In this document: positions 15,366 through 41,588 of the stretch, piece by piece
How positions within the stretch are numbered: position 1 is the first letter of the stretch
How the letters are laid out: every line of letters starts with the position of its first letter
Source: a virus
Direction: 5' to 3' (one strand)
Virus record (IMG/VR): IMGVR_UViG_3300032236_001599
Span: 1-44,378 of that record
DNA length: 44,378 nucleotides
Program-made: the position numbers and the translations under genes
The notes under the pieces: generated by a model
Database searches by the model: none
Told to the model about the DNA's origin: nothing
Seen by the model: the letters and a program-made list of their open reading frames with translations, nothing else

Positions 15366-18300
15366 TCAATGCCGTTTCTTCGGGGTAGGTTCGCCTGCGA
15401 TGGTGTCGGCGACTTCCTTCTCCGTCTGAGGATTGGCGACGATCTGGGCGGCGCCGGCGGCGATAGGTCCGCCGACAGCCCCGAGGGCCATGTTGGCCGC
15501 CGGCACGGCGACCGAGCGGTAGGCCGCCCGGACCGCGTTGCGTTCGGCCGCGTTGGAGTCGGGGTTGGCGGCGAGTTCCTTGACCGCCTTGAAGGTCTTG
15601 CCAGCCCAATCGCCCATGACGCCGGCAGGCATCTGGCCGCGATGGATGGCCTTCCACGCCATCTCGCCAGGGCCGGTGACGCCGGTGAACATGAGGGCGT
15701 CCGAGGCGTCCTTGACCCATTCGGGCAGGATGTCGTCGGGGTTTTCCTTCTTGTCCGAGGCGCCGTTGATGAGCTTCCGCAGCTCGCCGAGGCCGTAGTA
15801 GGCGGCCGTCAGGACGGCCATGGCGCCGTAGGAGCCGGTCGCCGCGAGGCGTTCGGTGGCGCTGTATCCGTTCTTGCCCGTCACCTTCTTGGCGATTTCG
15901 GCCATGTTGCGGGTGTGCTGCATGGACCATTCGTAGGGGTAGGTCGTCAACTGGAACAGGATCTTGCCGAGGGGGGAGTCGTTGGCCGCGATGGTCTTGG
16001 ACGAGCGGTTGGCCTGCACCATGGCCTGCTTGGAGAAGACCTGGACGGCGTTGCGGTAGGCTGCCGCCTGCGGGTCGTTCGGGTCGAGGATGCGGCTGAG
16101 CTGTTCCTCCGGGGCCTGCTTGCGCATGTCCTTCACCCAGTCGGCAAAGCCGTTCTGAGCGTCGGGCTTGACGCCGAGTTCGGCCAGGCGGTCCTTGGCG
16201 AGGTTGTCCATGCGGACGTCGAAGCCGGCGTCCCGCAGCACCTTCACGAGGCCGGTGGAGTTGTCGAGATGGCCGATGATCTTGTCGATGTAGTCGGAGC
16301 CGACGCGGAGCGAGGATTCGCGCTTGGCCGTCTCCGTGGCGCTGATACCGTAGAGACGGTGGACGTTGTCGGCCTGCTTGCGCCAGAAGCCTTCGGAGCC
16401 TCCCTCGTCGGAGTGGAAGCCTTCGGACATGGAATCAAGGCCGCGATGGAGGTGGTTGATGCCCATCTCCAACGCCAGGGCGGAGTAGAGGTCATGGCCC
16501 TTGCCGTAGGCCGCCTCGATGCCCTTGCTGAGGGCTTCGGGGTTGTAGGCGTCCTTGCGGGTCATGAGGATGTTCCGCACGCGGTTGAGGTTCGTCAGGA
16601 TGGTGGTGCCGGCGTCGATGGGGTTGCCGGTGCGGATGCCCATGCTTCCCGGCTCCACAAGGTTGAGCAGGCCGGTTCCCTTGAGGAAGGCGGTGGTGAC
16701 GAAGGCGTTGTTGGCGTTCAGCAGGGCAGTCTCCGCCTTATTCAGGCGGGCTGAGGTGACGCCGAGATACGACTGCAAGGCGGTCTGCATCTCGTTGATA
16801 TGGTCGGCGCTGACGCCCTCGTTGTACATCTTGCGCTTGGATTCCGCCCAGCCAGATCCGTCGGCGCCGAAGCGCTTGGCGATTTCGGCACGGCGGGCCA
16901 GCGAGCCGGAGTATCCGGCCAGCAACTTGCCGACGTCCTTCTCGCGGAAGTCGTCGAACATGGCCGCTTCTTCCGTGGTGAATTGGCGGGCCTTTTGGAA
17001 GTCCTCCTTGGAGCCGGGGCTGCCCTCCTGGAAGATGTTACGCTCGAAGTCCAGACCCTCGCGTCCGAGCAGGACGGCGTCGCGCCAGGCTTCGGCCTTT
17101 TTGACCGACGCATCCGCGATGAGCTTCCGCTTGCCTCCGCTGCCGGCGCCGGCGTACTGCTCGCCGAACTCCTTCTGAAGGTCTTCGGGGGACATCCGCT
17201 CATATCGGGCCTTGTAGGCCTTGGATGCCGCCTCGACGAAACCCTTCGGGTCTGCCGCGACGGATTCCTCGTTGATGCTGCGGGGGAAGTAATCCTTGAT
17301 TTCTCCCATCTCCAAGCCGGCGTCGATGCCGTACTGACGCATCTCTGCCAGAACCTTCTTCACACGCTCGACGGCCTTGCCAGTTTCGCCGCCGATGTTG
17401 GTAAGCCGGCCTTCGACGGCCTTGACGAACAGATCGTTGTACCTTGCCCGCTGTTCGGGCGTCATCTTCTGGACGTCCTTCAGCACCGGGCCGAGGGCCA
17501 AGCCGAGTTTGTTGCGGAAGGCGGTAGCCTGGTTCGAGACGGCCGTGCCGTAGTCCCGCTGGTTTTCGGAGTCGGGACGACCCGGAGCCAGGGAGAAGTC
17601 GTCGGCGACCTTGCGGGCCGTGGGCGACTGCGGGTTGATGTCGGCGACCGTGCGGATGCGCGTGCCGACGGACTTGAAGAACTTGACGACCGGGAAATCG
17701 GAGACGGAGCGGTAGGCGGAACCGCCGACCTTGACGGTCGGCTCCTTGCCGTCGGCGGCCGCCTCAAGGTCCGAGGCGTCGTCCTTATGGGCCGACTCCT
17801 GACCTGCGGCGACAGGGTCGCGGCGGGATTCCATGACATCGTGGCCGGTGTCGTGGATGTTGTTGGACCCGTATTCCTCTGCGGAATAACGTCCCTTGGC
17901 GAAGTTGGACAGAATCTTGGCCGCCTGATCCTTGCCGAACATCTGGCGGAAGTTGGTCTTGATGCCTTCCCAGAGCTGGACGAGCTTGTCCTTCCAGGTC
18001 CTGGGGCTTTCCGTGTAGACGGGGTCGCTGTTCAGGCGCTTGCGGACGACGTCCTTGAACGTCTCGGCGAACCATTCGTTGGCGTTGAACAGGCGGTAGG
18101 CTTCCTCGGAGGCGCGGACGCGGTACATCGGTTCGCCCTTGCCCGGAATCTGGGTGAAGCGGAGATCTTTGGTCAGTTCGGGGTATTCCTGGGAGACGCG
18201 CTGGATGTCCGTTCCCTTGACGCGGACCTTGTTCCAGTCCGCATCCTCGGCGCCGACTAGCTTGGCGAAGCCGGGGTTCTTCTTGAGGAAGTCACGGCGG

Positions 18301-21300
18301 GCGTCCAGCCATTCGGCACGCAGGGCGGCACGGTCGGATTCTGGGAGGAATTGGGCTAGGTGGTGGGCGACCTCATGGGCGGCCGTATCCTCGAAGCGGC
18401 CTTCGCGGATGGCGTCGCGGAAGATGGTGACGATGCGGTTGGCCGACTCGTACTGACCCTGCTGGCCTTCCTGGCCTTCACGGACGGACAGTTTCACGCC
18501 GTCGAAGAAACGGTTTCCGACCATGTTGAGGATGCGGGTAAGACCCTCGACCTCCTTGTCGGAAAGCTCGCCATTCTTGCGGGCCTCGAAGACGGCACGA
18601 TCCACGATGCCCTGGTAGCCACGGCGAGCGGGGTTGTCGTTGGCTCGGTTTTCGGCGTTCTGGTTGATGCGCCGGTCCAGCTCGTCGGCCTTGCGGGCGT
18701 CCGTGGCAGGGTTGCGTTCGACGTTCGGCTCGACGGACGGGGTAGTCTGATCAGGAGATTCTGCGGTCGCCGTACGCTTGACGTCACCTTCATCGCGAAG
18801 GGACTTGAAGTCGTTCCCGACAAAGGACGGGATTTCGTGGGCGTAAGACTTCCCGTCGCCCACCATGTCGACCGTCTGGAGGTTTCCGGTGGCCGACGAA
18901 AGTTTGGAGAGGTTTTCTCCGATGGCCTTGCGCTGGGCGACATCCATACCGTCGCCGACATAGGCGATCATGTTGACGGCGTTCGAGCGTTCGATGGCAG
19001 GAAGCAGGGTGTCGAGGCCGCCTTTCTGGCGCAGCTTCGTCATCTTGTCCGGCGTCATCTCTATGGAGCCGACAGGTTCGAGGTTGTTGTTGAGCAGCAG
19101 GACTCCGGTCTTGTCTCCGAATACGCTCTTGGCGAATGGAATGGCGTCGGACGGCTGTTTGAGTTGAGAGCCGATGGTGTCGTTCTGTGTGAAGACACGC
19201 TCGGTGATCGGTATGGTCTTGGTGCGGGCGAACTGCGGGATGGCAGCGCCTTCGGTCACGGCACCCTTGGTGTCGACAAAACTGTATTTGTCCTTCGCGA
19301 TGGCGAACAGGCCGCCATACTCGATGCCGGACTTCTTGAGAATGTTGGTCGTTCCGCTGTTGGTGCTTATGTCAGCAGGGGAAAGTTGGGTCCGACCAGA
19401 CGGGTGATTGTGGACGGCCCACACCTTGGCGGCTCCAGGGGTACCCAACGCGGCGCCGGTGATGATGCCCTGCGGAACCATGGCGGCCGTATGCGTGCCG
19501 GTGGTGATGCGGGCGATGTTGATGATCTTGCCGTTTTTGTCGGCGACGACGACGGCGAAGACTTCCTGCGGACGCTGGGCGAACCATTCTCCCGTGACGT
19601 GGGCGACGTCGGCAGGGGTCTGGACGGTGTCGAGGCCTGAGCGGAGGGAGCCAGCCTCGGCGTGTTCGACGACGGCGCCGAACTTGCCGCCAGGAAGGTC
19701 GACGCGATGGATGCGGTCCAAGGCCGGCTCCTGCCCCTTGGCTGGCTCGGCCTGATTGGCGGCAATCTTCTGGGCTTGCTGGATGACCCTGCGCTTGCGG
19801 GCCTGCTGGGCTTCGGTGGGCTGGGCGTTGGCTTCCGGGGCTGGCTTGACTGACTTGACGTTGCCGTTGGAGTCGAGCTGGAACTCCACCTGCTTGGGGC
19901 CGAACAGGCTTTGTTCTTCGGCTTCGTTGACCTGATCGCGGCGAGACGCAAACATGTCGCCCGTGGCGGTGTCGTTGTCCCTGAGATACTGCTTCTGCTC
20001 GTCGGGCGTCATCTCGTCGAACGACTTGGCGACGGGTTCGGCCGGCTTGGCGACAGGGTTGCCGCCGTTGGCGGCCGCTTCTTCTTCCTTGCTGACGCCG
20101 GCCTCGGCGTAGATCTGGTCGCGAAGCTCCGGGTTGGTTCGCCAGGTGCTGAGTTCCTCGCGCTGACGCTTGAGGTCGTCGATGTACTTCTTGGTCTTCT
20201 CGACGTTCTTGACCTTCACGCCGCCGGCGACGGCCTTGTCGGGACGCTTGGCGGCACCCTGCACGGCACGGAGCTGGTCGTCGATGGCGGAGCGTTTCTC
20301 CGCGACTTTCATGGCCAGCTTCTCGGCGATCTCCTGGAGCTTGGCGTCGTCCATGCCAAGGGCGTCCCACATGGTTCCTTGGCTCTCGGCGTCAGACTTG
20401 GCCTTAACACGCTCGCCCAGCAGATCCTTGATGGTGTTCATCACATCGACGACGGCCTCGGGGTGCATCCCCTTGGCGGCCGCCTTGGCGCCGGCGTTCT
20501 GCACGACCTCGTTGCCGGGGGCGTTCAGGGCGATGGCATGGGCCTGCCTGCTGTCGATGCGGTCGTTGATGAAAAGGTCGAGGGCGTCGCCCGTGAGGTT
20601 CTTCGCGATTTCGACGTTGCGACGCGCGCCTTCGGTGGACGATACGCGCTTGGCGGCCGACTCCATGGCGGCGTCGCCGCTCTTTTCACGGACTGCCCGG
20701 AGATACTTGACCGCGTCCTGCGGCGAACCCTTGCCGTCGGCGATGTTGATTTCGGCCGCCTGCATGCGGGCGTCGAGGGCCGACCATCCGTCCGCTTCCT
20801 TCAGGACGTGGACGTTCAGATCCTTGCGGCCGGCACGCTGGGCGAACTCAAGGCGGTGGTGGCCGTTGGCGACGATGTACTTCTGACCAGGTGCGAGGCC
20901 ATGGGCCGCCGGGTCGTTAGGCTGCCAGACGGTGACGATGCCGGCCTTGGTTTCATCCCATTGGCCGGAAAGCTTGTCGCGCTGATTGACGCCCGTGTCG
21001 ACCTCGTCGGTCGCTTTGTACTGCATGAGCTTCGGGTCGGCCTTGATTTCGGATGAGGCGACACGCTCGACGGGCAGGTTGTCCGTGGAACGCAGGGCGG
21101 CGCCTTCGCCCTCCACGTTGCGGGGCTGGGCTACACGCGGAGTCTGGACCTGCGGACTCGGAGCGGGGGCGGCTTCCTTGGGAGTTTCCGTGGGGGCTTC
21201 CACGGGGGCGACATCTGCGGCGGCCGGCTCAGGCTTGGCGGCTTCGGTTTGCGGGGCAACGGTCGGCTCCTTCGGCTGGACTTGCGGAGATTCAGGGGGG

Positions 21301-22334
21301 CTAATCTCCGCAGATTTGCGGGGAATAGTCGGCTCGGCGGCGGGAGCCACGAACTTGGCTTCTGCGGCGGGTTTGACCTGCGGGGCAGGGGTTGCCTCGG
21401 GCTGGACCGCAACAGGGGCAGGCGTGGCAGGCTTGGGGGCGGGAACAGGCTGCTGGACGGCAGGGGCCGGGGCGGGAGCAGGTTGAGCCGCCTGCGCTTG
21501 GGCCGCTTGCTCGGCGGCGATAAGGTCGGCGAGGGTGGAAGGAGCGGCAGCCTGAGCAGGCTGGGCAGGCTGGGCTTTAGCCGCCTGTTCAGCGGCGGTA
21601 AGGTCGGCCAGCGTGGCGTTTTTGCCGAACCGCGAACGGATGTCTTTAACTGGAATACGGCCGGCGACGTCGAGGGTGTGGCTGACGGGGTTGCCAGGCA
21701 GGAACAGGCCTTCGCCGATGGAGCCAGGAAGATGGGACAAGGCTTCCGTGAAGGGCGTTCCGGTTGCCAACTCCGTGCCAAAACCAAGGCCGCCGGCGAC
21801 AGCGCCGCCCTGCAAGGACTGACGGATCGCGTTGGCGTCGCCGCTCAGCGCGTTGACGGTGGTGGTAGGATTCGCCATGGCGGCGACGGATGGAAGCATC
21901 GCGCCGTACTTGGCGGCGTTAGGGCTGTTGATTGCCCCGACGATCTGCTGAGGGGAAGGCGGGACGACCTTGTTCTGAAGCCAATCGAACGCGGCGCCTC
22001 CGCCGGCAGCGCCTACGCCAGCGCCTAGCAATTCAATGCCAGCGGCGACGGGAGGGGCTTCGGCGAAGAAGCCAGCAAGCGGAGACACGGCTTCGGCTCC
22101 AAGGCCGGCACCGACCAAGCCGCCGCCGGTCGGAAGGACGCCACGCAGGGCCGACGTGCCGAATACCTTGGCGGCGGAATCGACCTGACTAGGGTCAAGC
22201 GCGATGACGTTGGACGGGTCAATTTCGTCGCCCGTTACGTCGTTGAGTTTCTGTCCTTGCGTTGGAGCTGAAACGACAGGCTTCTGAGGCGCTGCGCTTT
22301 GAACAAGAACGTCTTTAGGGTCAAACTCGGCCAT
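15366..22334 (-). CDS. Giant polyvalent ejection protein: ParB-like, RadC/JAMM-like and HExxH domains
   Basis: This encodes 2322 residues, the largest gene. Visible layout: alanine-rich N-terminus (1-220); Pro/Ala-rich linker (about 240-410); ParB/sulfiredoxin-like domain around VANGHHRLEFA (488-498); coiled-coil region (about 600-870); RadC-like MPN domain with JAMM motif H975-x-H977...S985..D988 (HNHPSGRTQLSPAD); zincin-like domain with HEVAH at 1320-1324; a long helical region; and a C-terminal part (about 2100-2322) with LFQLTTYPYEWSMQHTRN and a hydrophobic segment. Position after the ejection-type genes and size match podovirus internal core proteins (T7 gp16 place), and the mixed enzymatic domains match polyvalent proteins that enter the cell with the DNA. 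Individual activities are inferred from motifs. Confidence 0.88.
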   Translation of the reverse strand: MAEFDPKDVLVQSAAPQKPVVSAPTQGQKLNDVTGDEIDPSNVIALDPSQVDSAAKVFGTSALRGVLPTGGGLVGAGLGAEAVSPLAGFFAEAPPVAAGIELLGAGVGAAGGGAAFDWLQNKVVPPSPQQIVGAINSPNAAKYGAMLPSVAAMANPTTTVNALSGDANAIRQSLQGGAVAGGLGFGTELATGTPFTEALSHLPGSIGEGLFLPGNPVSHTLDVAGRIPVKDIRSRFGKNATLADLTAAEQAAKAQPAQPAQAAAPSTLADLIAAEQAAQAQAAQPAPAPAPAVQQPVPAPKPATPAPVAVQPEATPAPQVKPAAEAKFVAPAAEPTIPRKSAEISPPESPQVQPKEPTVAPQTEAAKPEPAAADVAPVEAPTETPKEAAPAPSPQVQTPRVAQPRNVEGEGAALRSTDNLPVERVASSEIKADPKLMQYKATDEVDTGVNQRDKLSGQWDETKAGIVTVWQPNDPAAHGLAPGQKYIVANGHHRLEFAQRAGRKDLNVHVLKEADGWSALDARMQAAEINIADGKGSPQDAVKYLRAVREKSGDAAMESAAKRVSSTEGARRNVEIAKNLTGDALDLFINDRIDSRQAHAIALNAPGNEVVQNAGAKAAAKGMHPEAVVDVMNTIKDLLGERVKAKSDAESQGTMWDALGMDDAKLQEIAEKLAMKVAEKRSAIDDQLRAVQGAAKRPDKAVAGGVKVKNVEKTKKYIDDLKRQREELSTWRTNPELRDQIYAEAGVSKEEEAAANGGNPVAKPAEPVAKSFDEMTPDEQKQYLRDNDTATGDMFASRRDQVNEAEEQSLFGPKQVEFQLDSNGNVKSVKPAPEANAQPTEAQQARKRRVIQQAQKIAANQAEPAKGQEPALDRIHRVDLPGGKFGAVVEHAEAGSLRSGLDTVQTPADVAHVTGEWFAQRPQEVFAVVVADKNGKIINIARITTGTHTAAMVPQGIITGAALGTPGAAKVWAVHNHPSGRTQLSPADISTNSGTTNILKKSGIEYGGLFAIAKDKYSFVDTKGAVTEGAAIPQFARTKTIPITERVFTQNDTIGSQLKQPSDAIPFAKSVFGDKTGVLLLNNNLEPVGSIEMTPDKMTKLRQKGGLDTLLPAIERSNAVNMIAYVGDGMDVAQRKAIGENLSKLSSATGNLQTVDMVGDGKSYAHEIPSFVGNDFKSLRDEGDVKRTATAESPDQTTPSVEPNVERNPATDARKADELDRRINQNAENRANDNPARRGYQGIVDRAVFEARKNGELSDKEVEGLTRILNMVGNRFFDGVKLSVREGQEGQQGQYESANRIVTIFRDAIREGRFEDTAAHEVAHHLAQFLPESDRAALRAEWLDARRDFLKKNPGFAKLVGAEDADWNKVRVKGTDIQRVSQEYPELTKDLRFTQIPGKGEPMYRVRASEEAYRLFNANEWFAETFKDVVRKRLNSDPVYTESPRTWKDKLVQLWEGIKTNFRQMFGKDQAAKILSNFAKGRYSAEEYGSNNIHDTGHDVMESRRDPVAAGQESAHKDDASDLEAAADGKEPTVKVGGSAYRSVSDFPVVKFFKSVGTRIRTVADINPQSPTARKVADDFSLAPGRPDSENQRDYGTAVSNQATAFRNKLGLALGPVLKDVQKMTPEQRARYNDLFVKAVEGRLTNIGGETGKAVERVKKVLAEMRQYGIDAGLEMGEIKDYFPRSINEESVAADPKGFVEAASKAYKARYERMSPEDLQKEFGEQYAGAGSGGKRKLIADASVKKAEAWRDAVLLGREGLDFERNIFQEGSPGSKEDFQKARQFTTEEAAMFDDFREKDVGKLLAGYSGSLARRAEIAKRFGADGSGWAESKRKMYNEGVSADHINEMQTALQSYLGVTSARLNKAETALLNANNAFVTTAFLKGTGLLNLVEPGSMGIRTGNPIDAGTTILTNLNRVRNILMTRKDAYNPEALSKGIEAAYGKGHDLYSALALEMGINHLHRGLDSMSEGFHSDEGGSEGFWRKQADNVHRLYGISATETAKRESSLRVGSDYIDKIIGHLDNSTGLVKVLRDAGFDVRMDNLAKDRLAELGVKPDAQNGFADWVKDMRKQAPEEQLSRILDPNDPQAAAYRNAVQVFSKQAMVQANRSSKTIAANDSPLGKILFQLTTYPYEWSMQHTRNMAEIAKKVTGKNGYSATERLAATGSYGAMAVLTAAYYGLGELRKLINGASDKKENPDDILPEWVKDASDALMFTGVTGPGEMAWKAIHRGQMPAGVMGDWAGKTFKAVKELAANPDSNAAERNAVRAAYRSVAVPAANMALGAVGGPIAAGAAQIVANPQTEKEVADTIAGEPTPKKRH

Positions 22335-39388: not shown

Positions 39389-39438
39389 TGTCGCAAGACA
39401 ACCAAACACCAACAAAACCCAATAACCACCGAACTCAA

Positions 39439-39810
39439 ATGCACACGCCCGCCCACCGCACCGATGGCAAGCCCCGCCGCCTTGCCCGCCTCATCGCCTT
39501 TGTCGAGGCGAACCACGCCGCCACGAAGGAGAGCGGCAACGCCCTCGTCAGCGCCGCCGACCTCAAGGCCTTGCTCGGCCTGCTCAAGGCCGCCGCGAAG
39601 GAAGTCCCTGCCGCCGTCACCGTTCCCGAATGGGACAACCACCTAGACGACAACGGCGAGCCTGTCGGCCTTGGCGACGCCTGCGCCACTTACGCCGCTT
39701 GGGTTGAGGACGCAGAAGTTGACCATGACGGCGCATGCCAAGTCGCCAGCGTTGCCGAGTCCCTGCGCCTGACCCTTAACGCCCTCGACCGCATCTCTGA
39801 CGCCAACTAA
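39439..39810 (+). CDS. Small-gene operon protein 1, unknown
   Basis: This encodes 123 residues from ATG 39439 after ATAACCACCGAACTCAA, an SD-less leader; a GTG at 39388 is open but sits in the operator. It is helical and acidic. RRLARLIAFVEANHAATKES and LVSAADLKALLGLLKAAAKE form two leucine-rich helices, and DNHLDDNGEPVGLGDA forms an acidic loop. No known domain is recognised. It is the first of seven rightward genes. Confidence 0.75.
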   Translation: MHTPAHRTDGKPRRLARLIAFVEANHAATKESGNALVSAADLKALLGLLKAAAKEVPAAVTVPEWDNHLDDNGEPVGLGDACATYAAWVEDAEVDHDGACQVASVAESLRLTLNALDRISDAN

Positions 39811-39845
39811 CTCCAGACCTAACTCTCCAACCCAACCCAAACACC

Positions 39846-40262
39846 ATGAGCAAACCCGACACCCACGCCAGCCTGATGCTGGCAATCCTCTCCCTCGACC
39901 CGTCCGACATCGCCGCCGACCTTGTGCAGGCGGCGGACGGGCATGACGGACGCATGGATCTAGTCAGAAGCCTTCTCGACCTTGCCGCCGCCGTTGCGTC
40001 CGAGGTGGGAGATGACATGGAGGCCATGGCGGACGGCTACGATGTCGACCGCGAGACGGGCGAGACGCATCGCGGCAACGGCCCTGAGGAAGAAGCCCGG
40101 GCCTACGCCCTGCACCTTTACGCCTGCGGCGAAGTCGCCAACGATGCCGCCCGCGCTTGCTGGAAGGCTTCCGAGGCCTTCACCGCCGCCGAGGCCAAGG
40201 CTGACGCCCTGCCGTCCGAGTTCACCGCCGAAGAGTTCGTTGCCACCCTGAAGACCCTCTAA
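39846..40262 (+). CDS. Small-gene operon protein 2, unknown
   Basis: This encodes 138 residues. It starts after TCCAACCCAACCCAAACACC with no SD. It is mostly helical and acidic (MLAILSLDPSDIAADLVQAA, DVDRETGETHRGNGPEEEAR, AEEFVATLKTL) and resembles its neighbours in composition rather than in motifs. Its stop codon (TAA, 40260-40262) directly abuts the hammerhead ribozyme, so its mRNA would acquire a 3' end 22 bases after the stop. Function is unknown. Confidence 0.78.
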   Translation: MSKPDTHASLMLAILSLDPSDIAADLVQAADGHDGRMDLVRSLLDLAAAVASEVGDDMEAMADGYDVDRETGETHRGNGPEEEARAYALHLYACGEVANDAARACWKASEAFTAAEAKADALPSEFTAEEFVATLKTL

Positions 40263-40312
40263 GGCCGAAACGCCGCAAGGCGTCCGCTGGTCATGCCAGC
40301 GCTGACGAGGCC
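40263..40312 (+). ncRNA. Type II hammerhead self-cleaving ribozyme
   Basis: This is a complete hammerhead core in permuted order. The open stem II is GGCC (40263-40266) pairing with GGCC (40309-40312). Next comes GAA (40267-40269). Stem III is ACGCC (40270-40274) / GGCGT (40279-40283) with a GCAA loop. C40284 is the H17 cleavage base, giving the GUC triplet. Stem I is CGCTGG (40285-40290) / CCAGCG (40296-40301) with loop TCATG, followed by the invariant CTGACGA (40302-40308). All invariant nucleotides and the A15.1-U16.1 pair are present, and every stem pairs perfectly. Cleavage would fall between 40284 and 40285. Open stem II with closed I and III defines type II. It sits between two cistrons of a small phage operon, beginning at the first base after a stop codon. 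Confidence 0.93.
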
Positions 40313-40342
40313 AACGCCACCAGATCCAATTTCCCCCCAACC

Positions 40343-40738
40343 ATGAAAACCACAAACACCGCCCACGAAGTCACCGCCCGTCTCGCCGCCCTGCTGGTCG
40401 AGATTAACACCCACGCCCAGAAGGCCGACATCCTTCAGGACGCCGCCCAGCAGGCCCACAACGAGATTGGATGCGAGGCAACGCACAGCGGCGACCTCGT
40501 CACCCTGATTGCAATCCTCGGACGTCACGCCGCCGATGCCGCGGAGGCCGATGCTGTCGAACTGTGCGGCTTCTACGAAGACGAGGCCCGCTTCCCTTCC
40601 TCCGATCACAAGCCCGGCGATTGCCGCCGCTACTCGGCGGAATACAGCGAGGCCTCGGCCGCTTACGAGCGGGCTGGCATCACGTTCACGAACCTTGCCA
40701 ACGCGCTTGACGATGAACTGCGGGCGTCTGGCATCTGA
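40343..40738 (+). CDS. Small-gene operon protein 3, unknown
   Basis: This encodes 131 residues. ATG follows AATTTCCCCCCAACC (no SD). It is helical (ARLAALLVEINTHAQKADIL, LVTLIAILGRHAADAAEADA) with three cysteines and an acidic character; no family is recognised. It is the first gene downstream of the ribozyme cut, so its mRNA would begin with the 5' stem I hairpin and a 5' hydroxyl if cleavage occurs. Confidence 0.76.
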   Translation: MKTTNTAHEVTARLAALLVEINTHAQKADILQDAAQQAHNEIGCEATHSGDLVTLIAILGRHAADAAEADAVELCGFYEDEARFPSSDHKPGDCRRYSAEYSEASAAYERAGITFTNLANALDDELRASGI

Positions 40739-40750
40739 ACCTTTCCCACC

Positions 40751-40770
40751 AACCCAACCCAACCCAACCC
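40751..40770 (+). repeat. Four tandem AACCC repeats in a leader
   Basis: Four perfect copies of AACCC run directly into AAACC-ATG of the 27-residue gene. A two-copy version precedes the gene at 39846. This is the extreme form of the C/A-rich, SD-less leader used throughout this phage. Confidence 0.85.
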
Positions 40771-40775
40771 AAACC

Positions 40776-40859
40776 ATGCAAACCCTGAAAGAAGGCCTTA
40801 TCTCCCTGCTGATCGCCGCAGTCGCCTACGTGCTGACCGTCCTTGCGTTCTGCCTCTAA
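40776..40859 (+). CDS. 27-residue single-pass membrane peptide
   Basis: This encodes only 27 residues: a charged start (MQTLKEG) followed by one transmembrane helix (LISLLIAAVAYVLTVLAFCL). The ATG is placed exactly after the AACCC leader repeats, and the next gene starts 19 bp after its stop, which supports translation. Possible roles are a small membrane regulator, a superinfection or holin-like peptide, or a toxin-like peptide; none is proven. Confidence 0.68.
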   Translation: MQTLKEGLISLLIAAVAYVLTVLAFCL

Positions 40860-40878
40860 TCTCCAACCCACCCAACAC

Positions 40879-41106
40879 ATGAAAACCGAAACCGTCCCGT
40901 TCCTGGCTGTCCGAGTCAGGCAGATTAACCTCAAGACCCACGCCACGCGCGAAGCCGTGTGGAGCGGTCGCTTCCGAGATTTGGAAGACGCCCGTGATTA
41001 CTACTTCCACGCCGTTTCCGTCGTCATCGATGAAGACGACAACACCGGCAAGGAAACCGTCTGGAAGATTGTCGGCGTCGAGCTGCTGGAAGGAGGCAAC
41101 CGATGA
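40879..41106 (+). CDS. Small-gene operon protein 5, unknown
   Basis: This encodes 75 residues from ATG 40879 after CTCCAACCCACCCAACAC. It has an alternating strand/helix pattern (VPFLAVRVRQINLKTH, GRFRDLEDARDYYFHAVSVV, VWKIVGVELLEGG) that suggests a small alpha/beta fold. It is in ATGA overlap with the next gene, and its LLEGGNR end encodes the SD (GGAGG) for it. Function is unknown. Confidence 0.75.
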   Translation: MKTETVPFLAVRVRQINLKTHATREAVWSGRFRDLEDARDYYFHAVSVVIDEDDNTGKETVWKIVGVELLEGGNR

Positions 41107-41357
41107 GCCACCCGATCACGCTCGAACAGCAGGCGGCCTACTACGCCGAGAAGCATCGCAAGGCCATCGCCGACCTGCCTGCGCTGATCGCGGAGCGGGA
41201 TGCGGCCGAAGCGGCTTGGTGCGAGAAGGGCGGTTCGGTTCGGATGTGGCTGGCCCGCGACGCGGTGACGGCGCAGTATCGCTTTATCGACAAGATGAAG
41301 CGGGAAGCCGACACGCACGCGCTGCTGCTGGACCTGTGCAAGGGGGTGAGGCGATGA
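41103..41357 (+). CDS. Small-gene operon protein 6, unknown
   Basis: This encodes 84 residues: a helical, charged protein (YYAEKHRKAIADLPALIAER, RFIDKMKREADTHALLLDLC). It is translationally coupled on both sides by ATGA overlaps. No known domain is seen; a coiled-coil hairpin is plausible. Confidence 0.72.
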   Translation: MSHPITLEQQAAYYAEKHRKAIADLPALIAERDAAEAAWCEKGGSVRMWLARDAVTAQYRFIDKMKREADTHALLLDLCKGVRR

Positions 41358-41491
41358 CCGACCCGAAGCAGACGGAGATTGCCGGCGCTGACGGGTTCAA
41401 TCTGATCGGCGAGGAAGTGCGGGATTGGCAGCCTCCCCCTCCTGCCGACGACAAGACCGGCGAACTGCCCGGAATGAACAAAACCCCCTGA
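41354..41491 (+). CDS. Small-gene operon protein 7, unknown
   Basis: This encodes 45 residues from ATG 41354 (ATGA overlap). It is acidic and proline-rich (EVRDWQPPPPADDKTGELPG) and probably unstructured. Its stop codon TGA (41489-41491) lies in the loop of the operon's terminator. It is supported by overlap spacing alone. Confidence 0.6.
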   Translation: MTDPKQTEIAGADGFNLIGEEVRDWQPPPPADDKTGELPGMNKTP

Positions 41492-41504
41492 ACGGGGGTT
41501 TTTT
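41480..41504 (+). terminator. Terminator of the small-gene operon
   Basis: A perfect 9-bp stem, AAAACCCCC (41480-41488) / GGGGGTTTT (41494-41502), encloses a TGAAC loop and is followed by further T residues. The last coding codon and stop of the operon fall inside the hairpin. Confidence 0.88.
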
Positions 41505-41588
41505 GTTTCCTGACCTTTTCGGACTGCCTCCGCATTTGCCCTGTAAGGCGTTTTGATTGTCCCGCCCTTACCCTGCTACCCCCGACCC

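What the first reader, a model, noticed from the sequence alone, without database searches (positions are those of the whole stretch)
40263..40312. Complete type II hammerhead ribozyme between two small phage genes
The 50 bases after a stop codon contain the entire hammerhead core: GAA, CTGACGA, a GUC cleavage triplet, and stems I (6 bp), II (4 bp) and III (5 bp), all perfectly paired with no core deviation. Stem II is open, so it is type II. Cleavage between 40284 and 40285 would split a polycistronic mRNA of unknown small proteins, leaving the upstream mRNA with a 2',3'-cyclic phosphate and the downstream message with a 5' hydroxyl hairpin leader. Hammerheads are known in phage-related and metagenomic DNA. 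Placement as an intercistronic processing site abutting a stop codon in a repressible small-gene operon is unusual and could set separate stabilities for the two halves.
Basis: partly seen in the sequence, partly recalled or inferred. Interest (0 to 1): 0.95.

Follow-up and report, generated by a model that had tools for sequence, protein, structure and literature searches.

The report
Phage type II hammerhead ribozyme
A temperate-type phage carries a complete self-cutting RNA (a type II hammerhead ribozyme) starting directly after one small gene's stop codon and ending before the next gene, where it probably cuts the shared messenger in two; such ribozymes are already known in phages, and this study adds that about half of a sample of 269 sit directly against a stop codon in the same way.

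Summary
Window 40263-40312 (+) is a perfect type II hammerhead: GGCC/GGCC stem II, GAA, ACGCC-GCAA-GGCGU stem III, C17, a 6-bp stem I, and CUGACGA. Cleavage would fall between 40284 and 40285, 22 nt after the TAA stop. Chance is excluded: 0 comparable hits in 300 surrogate windows. Rfam Hammerhead_II aligns full length but below its cut-off (25.4 against 37 bits). A covariance model built from 57 other phage and prophage hammerheads, without this one, gives 68.7 bits, E 5e-17. A relative with 77% identical terminase has its own hammerhead in the counterpart operon, overlapping a TAG stop, with all three stems changed compensatorily. All 40 loci with several copies have them on one strand. Cultured Streptomyces phage Yara has eight, seven 11-16 nt before annotated starts. 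Processing of phage polycistronic RNA by tandem hammerheads was proposed and partly shown in 2011 (PMC3088659). New member of a known kind; the stop-codon abutment and a possible 'anti-core' hairpin in relatives appear unreported in the papers searched.

The parts
39439..39810 (+). gene A of the small-gene operon, 123 aa, no family match
39846..40262 (+). gene B, 138 aa, unknown function; its TAA stop (40260-40262) abuts the ribozyme. A distant homologue in relative L004 has no ribozyme after it
40262..40262 (+). A just 5' of stem II, shared with the TAA stop; A at this place in 125 of 132 compact-class hammerheads, so possibly a tertiary-contact base
40263..40312 (+). complete type II hammerhead ribozyme
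40263..40266 (+). stem II 5' strand GGCC (pairs with 40309-40312)
40267..40269 (+). core GAA (G12 A13 A14; G12 is the general base)
   Evidence: role of G12: PMC2553840 abstract
40270..40283 (+). stem III hairpin ACGCC-GCAA-GGCGT; would become the 3'-terminal hairpin of the upstream mRNA
40284..40285 (+). predicted cleavage between C17 (40284) and C1.1 (40285)
   Evidence: hammerhead rule, inference
40285..40301 (+). stem I hairpin CGCTGG-TCATG-CCAGCG (loop fits the U-N-A-N-G class consensus); would become the 5'-terminal hairpin of the downstream mRNA
40302..40308 (+). core CTGACGA (N7 = C)
40309..40312 (+). stem II 3' strand GGCC
40313..40342 (+). 30-nt C/A-rich leader between ribozyme and next start, no Shine-Dalgarno sequence visible
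40343..40738 (+). gene C, 131 aa, unknown function, downstream of the ribozyme
40776..41491 (+). genes D-G (40776-40859, 40879-41106, 41103-41357, 41354-41491), rest of the operon
41480..41510 (+). intrinsic-terminator-like hairpin and T run closing the operon (overlaps the end of gene G)

Best explanation
It is a genuine, probably active type II hammerhead ribozyme serving as a cis-acting processing site in a phage operon. The RNA folds and cuts itself between 40284 and 40285. The upstream message (genes A-B) keeps its stop codon and ends 22 nt later in the stem III hairpin with a 2',3'-cyclic phosphate. The downstream message (genes C-G) begins with a 5'-OH directly at the stem I hairpin. 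Both new ends are therefore hairpin-capped, which should uncouple the decay of the two halves. Shown here: the motif, its significance, covariation, a counterpart in a relative, and the recurrent stop / ribozyme / start layout. Inferred: cleavage in the cell, co-transcription of the genes, and the effect on stability.
For: Perfect core and stems. Independent covariance model: 68.7 bits, E 5e-17 on the window. Hammerhead in relative L003 at the TAG stop of the third gene of the counterpart operon, with stems II, III and I all changed but paired (59.1 bits). Non-circular test: of 141 pattern matches fixing only the core and inner stem bases, 112 have stem I 5/5 paired (shuffled mean 5.4, maximum 12) and 123 have the next three stem III pairs (shuffled mean 26). 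Placement: sense-strand stop within 2 nt of the ribozyme start in 86/157, 46/85 and 13/27; next ATG a median 29 nt downstream; in all 40 multi-copy loci the copies share one strand, median spacing 566 nt. Streptomyces phage Yara: eight copies, seven of them 11-16 nt before annotated starts. Literature: A. tumefaciens tandem hammerheads cleave in vitro and in E. coli; the HF1/HF2 transcript 5' end maps within 3 nt of the cleavage site (PMC3088659).
Against: No RNA or cleavage data for this element. Rfam score is below the curated cut-off (25.4 against 37), though many compact relatives also fall below it. No loop I/3'-tail pseudoknot, so speed at low magnesium is uncertain. Folded together with gene B's bare 3' coding sequence, an alternative structure is 8.3 kcal/mol better (-41.6 against -33.3), so activity may need translation or co-transcriptional folding. 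The hammerhead is absent from the other, mostly partial, relatives searched.
Confidence: 0.77

Rival explanations
1. Translation-gated ribozyme: the ribosome terminating at the abutting stop occupies stem II's 5' strand and GAA, so heavy translation of gene B keeps the message intact and cutting happens in gaps between ribosomes or after translation ceases. Abutment to the stop would be the mechanism of control rather than mere compactness. (A refinement of the best explanation, not exclusive with it.)
For: Strong positional peak at the stop codon (145/269; most often overlapping stem II's first base as TAG or TAA). With UAA in the A site the usual ribosome leading edge (about +15/16 from the P site, own knowledge) would reach about 40272, covering GGCC, GAA and part of stem III. 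Gene B's 3' coding sequence offers a competing fold that a ribosome would remove.
Against: Compact phage genomes would give the same spacing without any gating. An A is needed just before stem II in any case (125/132) and stop codons supply it. About 46% of the ribozymes do not abut a detected long-frame stop.
Confidence: 0.2
2. Functional cleavage, but the main purpose is to free the downstream leader for translation or to protect its 5' end (leader maturation), the upstream end being incidental.
For: In phage Yara seven of eight lie 11-16 nt before an annotated start, whether or not a stop is close upstream; next ATG a median 29 nt away elsewhere; HF1/HF2 case 13 nt before a start (PMC3088659).
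Against: The tight stop-codon peak in the viral sample points equally to the upstream end; the window's leader is 30 nt and has no visible Shine-Dalgarno sequence.
Confidence: 0.3
3. Inactive relic or neutral passenger spread by recombination between phages.
For: Patchy presence: absent after the gene B homologue in L004 and from most relatives searched, many of which are fragments. Near-identical copies recur within some phages.
Against: Zero core deviation; all three stems changed yet paired in the counterpart; class-wide compensatory changes in 12 of 15 pairs.
Confidence: 0.07
4. Chance inverted repeats with a coincidental core.
For: GC-rich sequence makes hairpins common (fold z-score only -2.1).
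Against: 0 comparable hits in 300 surrogates; E 5e-17 with an independent model; counterpart in a relative.
Confidence: 0.005

Closest known systems
Type II hammerhead ribozymes of bacteria and prophages (Perreault et al. 2011, PMC3088659; Rfam RF02276)
   Same: Core, three stems, open stem II, GUC cleavage triplet, intergenic phage location, flanking genes of varied identity
   Different: No loop I/3'-tail pseudoknot; stem I is a 6-bp hairpin with a U-N-A-N-G loop and stem II is GGCC/GGCC; Rfam score below the curated cut-off; a single copy in this operon
Tandem hammerheads flanking ardA in Agrobacterium tumefaciens (PMC3088659)
   Same: Proposed to cut phage polycistronic RNA into gene-length messages; shown to cleave in vitro and in E. 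coli
   Different: Three copies around known genes; here one copy between two unknown genes, activity untested
HHphage hammerhead variant of haloviruses HF1/HF2 (PMC3088659)
   Same: Sits just upstream of a phage gene; transcript 5' end maps near the cleavage site
   Different: Core-variant ribozyme in archaeal viruses, 13 nt before a helicase start; here the core is canonical and the site abuts the upstream stop

Membership tests
Type II hammerhead ribozyme (criteria of PMC3088659 methods) | Core nucleotides C3 U4 G5 A6 N7 G8 A9, G12 A13 A14, A15.1-U16.1, H17 | tested here: met
   All present at 40267-40308, aligned to RF02276 end to end
Type II hammerhead ribozyme (criteria of PMC3088659 methods) | No mispair next to the core; no multiple mispairs or bulges in stems | tested here: met
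   Stems II 4/4, III 5/5, I 6/6 paired
Type II hammerhead ribozyme (criteria of PMC3088659 methods) | Stems I and III closed by loops, stem II open | tested here: met
   Order II-GAA-III-C-I-CUGACGA-II
Type II hammerhead ribozyme (criteria of PMC3088659 methods) | Covariation of stems among relatives | tested here: met
   Counterpart in L003; 12 of 15 pairs with changes on both sides in 57 relatives (members were picked with paired stems); non-circular check
Type II hammerhead ribozyme (criteria of PMC3088659 methods) | Site-specific self-cleavage | not testable with these tools
   Needs in vitro transcription
Rfam RF02276 curated set (automatic annotation threshold, not a structural feature) | Score at or above the gathering cut-off of 37 bits | tested here: not met
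   25.4 bits; many pattern-found compact hammerheads also score below it
Pseudoknotted majority form of type II hammerheads | Loop I pairs with 3' tail (4 bp or more) | tested here: not met
   Loop UCAUG has no 3-nt complement in the 14 nt after stem II (sequence); typical of the compact class, 51/83 with none
Multi-ribozyme phage processing arrays | Several co-oriented hammerheads in one operon | tested here: not met
   Only one hammerhead in the window

The most novel reading that the evidence does not exclude
Phage type II hammerheads are placed exactly on stop codons because translation termination gates them: a terminating ribosome masks the 5' half of the catalytic core, so mRNA cutting reports, and responds to, ribosome traffic on the upstream gene. 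In a sub-branch an added N'UCAG sequence complementary to the core CUGAN7 adds a second off-switch or a post-cleavage 5' hairpin.
Probability: 0.18. Interest if true: 0.72.

Novelty: new member of a known kind. Interest (0 to 1): 0.4.

Why it matters
What phage hammerheads do has been open since they were found in prophages in 2011. The recurrent stop / ribozyme / start arrangement, counted here on 269 examples, turns 'near genes' into a precise and testable layout. A cultured phage with eight such sites (Streptomyces phage Yara) gives a laboratory system. Annotation pipelines relying on the Rfam cut-off miss much of this compact form.

Tried and rejected
Other structured RNAs in the window: no Rfam family at its gathering score. 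tRNA genes: none. Homologues of genes B and C by viral-contig scan: none; only a distant B homologue in L004. Gene B against L003's upstream gene, and gene C against L003's two next genes: not significant, so the counterpart is by operon position, not by proven gene homology. Near-identical DNA in catalogued phages: none. Loop I/3'-tail pseudoknot: absent in the window. Alternative pairing of downstream AACGCC (and L003 AAACACC) with the stem III 3' strand: considered and set aside because the local GCAA-capped hairpin should win and such A/C-rich strings recur in these leaders. Anti-core hairpin for the window itself: no NTCAG downstream. Type III reading of L003 (RF00008): the downstream strand has A in place of G12, so rejected in favour of type II.

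Full report
WHAT IS THERE. Window 40263-40312 (+) reads GGCC GAA ACGCC GCAA GGCGT C CGCTGG TCATG CCAGCG CTGACGA GGCC, directly after TAA 40260-40262. This is the order of a type II hammerhead: stem II open, stems I and III closed by loops. Every core position is canonical (N7 = C) and every pair of the three stems is standard. Predicted cleavage is after C17, between 40284 and 40285. The isolated RNA folds to exactly this structure. Rfam Hammerhead_II (RF02276) aligns over its full length with 25.4 bits (E 1.2e-4 for the genome), below the 37-bit gathering score, so default annotation misses it. In 300 first-order Markov surrogates of the window no hammerhead with stems this long occurred, and five loose ones did.

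SURROUNDINGS. The window is a 44,378-base virus record with terminase, portal, major head protein, tail fibre, primase/helicase, Cas4-like exonuclease and an integrase, so a tailed, probably temperate phage. The ribozyme lies in a plus-strand operon of small unknown genes (A 39439-39810, B 39846-40262, ribozyme, C 40343-40738, D-G to 41491) that ends at a terminator-like hairpin at about 41,480-41,510. No sigma-70-like promoter was found, and nothing supports 'repressible'. No other hammerhead is present in the window.

RELATIVES. Terminase similarity brought 17 contigs. One, L003 (77% identity), has a hammerhead 5 kb upstream of terminase on the opposite strand, as in the window: GGAC GAA ACACCGC TTCG GCGGTGT C CGTGGG TATCG CCCACG CTGACGA GTCC. 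Its first base is the last base of a TAG stop. All three stems differ from the window's and remain paired. Flanking genes are not demonstrably homologous, and the other relatives, many only fragments, show none, so presence is patchy.

THE CLASS. Of 141 distinct matches, 112 have stem I 5/5 paired (shuffled mean 5.4, maximum 12) and 123 have the next three stem III pairs (shuffled mean 26), so most are real. Two forms appear: the known pseudoknotted form, and a compact form with a 6-bp stem I, a U-N-A-N-G loop, usually GGCC/GGCC or AGCC/GGCT stem II, and A just before stem II (125/132). The window belongs to the compact form. In 57 compact members, which were selected with paired stems, 12 of 15 pairs show changes on both sides. 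A covariance model from those 57, excluding the window and L003, scores the window 68.7 bits (E 5e-17) and L003 59.1 bits.

PLACEMENT. A sense-strand stop codon closing a frame of at least 80 codons lies within 2 nt of the ribozyme start in 86 of 157, 46 of 85 and 13 of 27 (three separate samples), together 145 of 269; the opposite-strand control in the first sample gives 7 of 157. The commonest case is TAG whose G is stem II's first base. The next ATG is a median 29 nt after stem II. In all 40 loci with several hammerheads the copies lie on one strand, median spacing 566 nt, about one small gene. Flanking proteins are varied (46 PHROG families among 133, nearly all seen once), mostly unknown, with DNA-metabolism and anti-restriction members. 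Streptomyces phage Yara, a cultured isolate, has eight unannotated copies. Seven lie 11-16 nt before annotated starts and four lie 7-10 nt after annotated stops.

HOW IT MOST LIKELY WORKS. Self-cleavage would leave genes A-B on a message that keeps its stop codon and ends in the stem III hairpin with a 2',3'-cyclic phosphate, and genes C-G on a message that begins with 5'-OH at the stem I hairpin. Both ends are structured, so the two halves can decay separately. The anatomy is shown; cleavage and effect are inferred. Support from the literature: tandem hammerheads from A. tumefaciens cleave in vitro and in E. coli, processing of phage polycistronic RNA was proposed, and the HF1/HF2 transcript 5' end maps within 3 nt of a hammerhead cleavage site (PMC3088659). 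A caveat: with gene B's untranslated 3' end included, a competing fold is 8.3 kcal/mol better; translation or co-transcriptional folding would be needed to avoid it. Conversely, a ribosome stopped at TAA should cover stem II's 5' strand and GAA (ribosome footprint from own knowledge). Whether this gating matters is open.

SIDE OBSERVATION. Part of the compact class has [N']TCAG just after stem II, complementary to the core CUGAN7: N7=C goes with GTCAG 20:0 and N7=T with ATCAG 7:1 (Fisher p 7e-6, not corrected for relatedness), and two N7=A members of L194 carry TTCAG. A CUGAN-GAGGCC-N'UCAG hairpin would destroy the core or, after cleavage, stack next to stem I. The window and L003 lack it.

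NOVELTY. Type II hammerheads in phage operons and the processing hypothesis are published (PMC3088659). No paper found reports the stop-codon abutment or the anti-core motif (most were judged by title and abstract only); that library is incomplete (no subscription journals). The window element itself is a new member of a known kind.

Noticed in passing
L035, L065, L091, L113, L116, L199, L233 and others, just 3' of stem II: N'TCAG complementary to the core CUGAN7 in part of the compact hammerheads (N7=C with GTCAG 20:0, N7=T with ATCAG 7:1): a possible anti-core hairpin acting as an off-state or as a post-cleavage 5' cap.
   Followed up: partly
L244 (Streptomyces phage Yara MH019215.1, 52146-57983, minus strand): Eight unannotated type II hammerheads between small genes of a cultured phage, seven of them 11-16 nt before an annotated start codon.
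   Followed up: partly
L039, L049, L051, L024, L042, L083: Three to nine co-oriented hammerheads per locus, roughly one per gene, with stem I sequences that differ while stem III is nearly constant in L039.
   Followed up: partly
L221, L226, L229, L240 (Micromonosporaceae MAG Dino_bin41): Four small contigs (3.0-8.8 kb, coverage 31-63) of one bin carry very similar hammerheads after ATGTGA; perhaps pieces of one phage or plasmid.
   Followed up: no
L237 (Singulisphaera sp. GP187 chromosome): At least six co-oriented hammerheads in 8 kb of an isolate's chromosome, some with U as H17; probably a prophage.
   Followed up: no
window 39400-41500 and L003: Small genes have C/A-rich leaders (CCAACCCAACACC-ATG) and no visible Shine-Dalgarno sequence in a GC-rich phage.
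   Followed up: no
window 15366-22334 (-): A 2322-aa protein, about 16% of the record, with only a RadC-like JAB domain recognised at residues 905-1020.
   Followed up: no
window about 42.1 kb: Short TTTG tandem run (TTTGTTTGTTTGTTTGTTTG) in a stretch without recognised genes.
   Followed up: no
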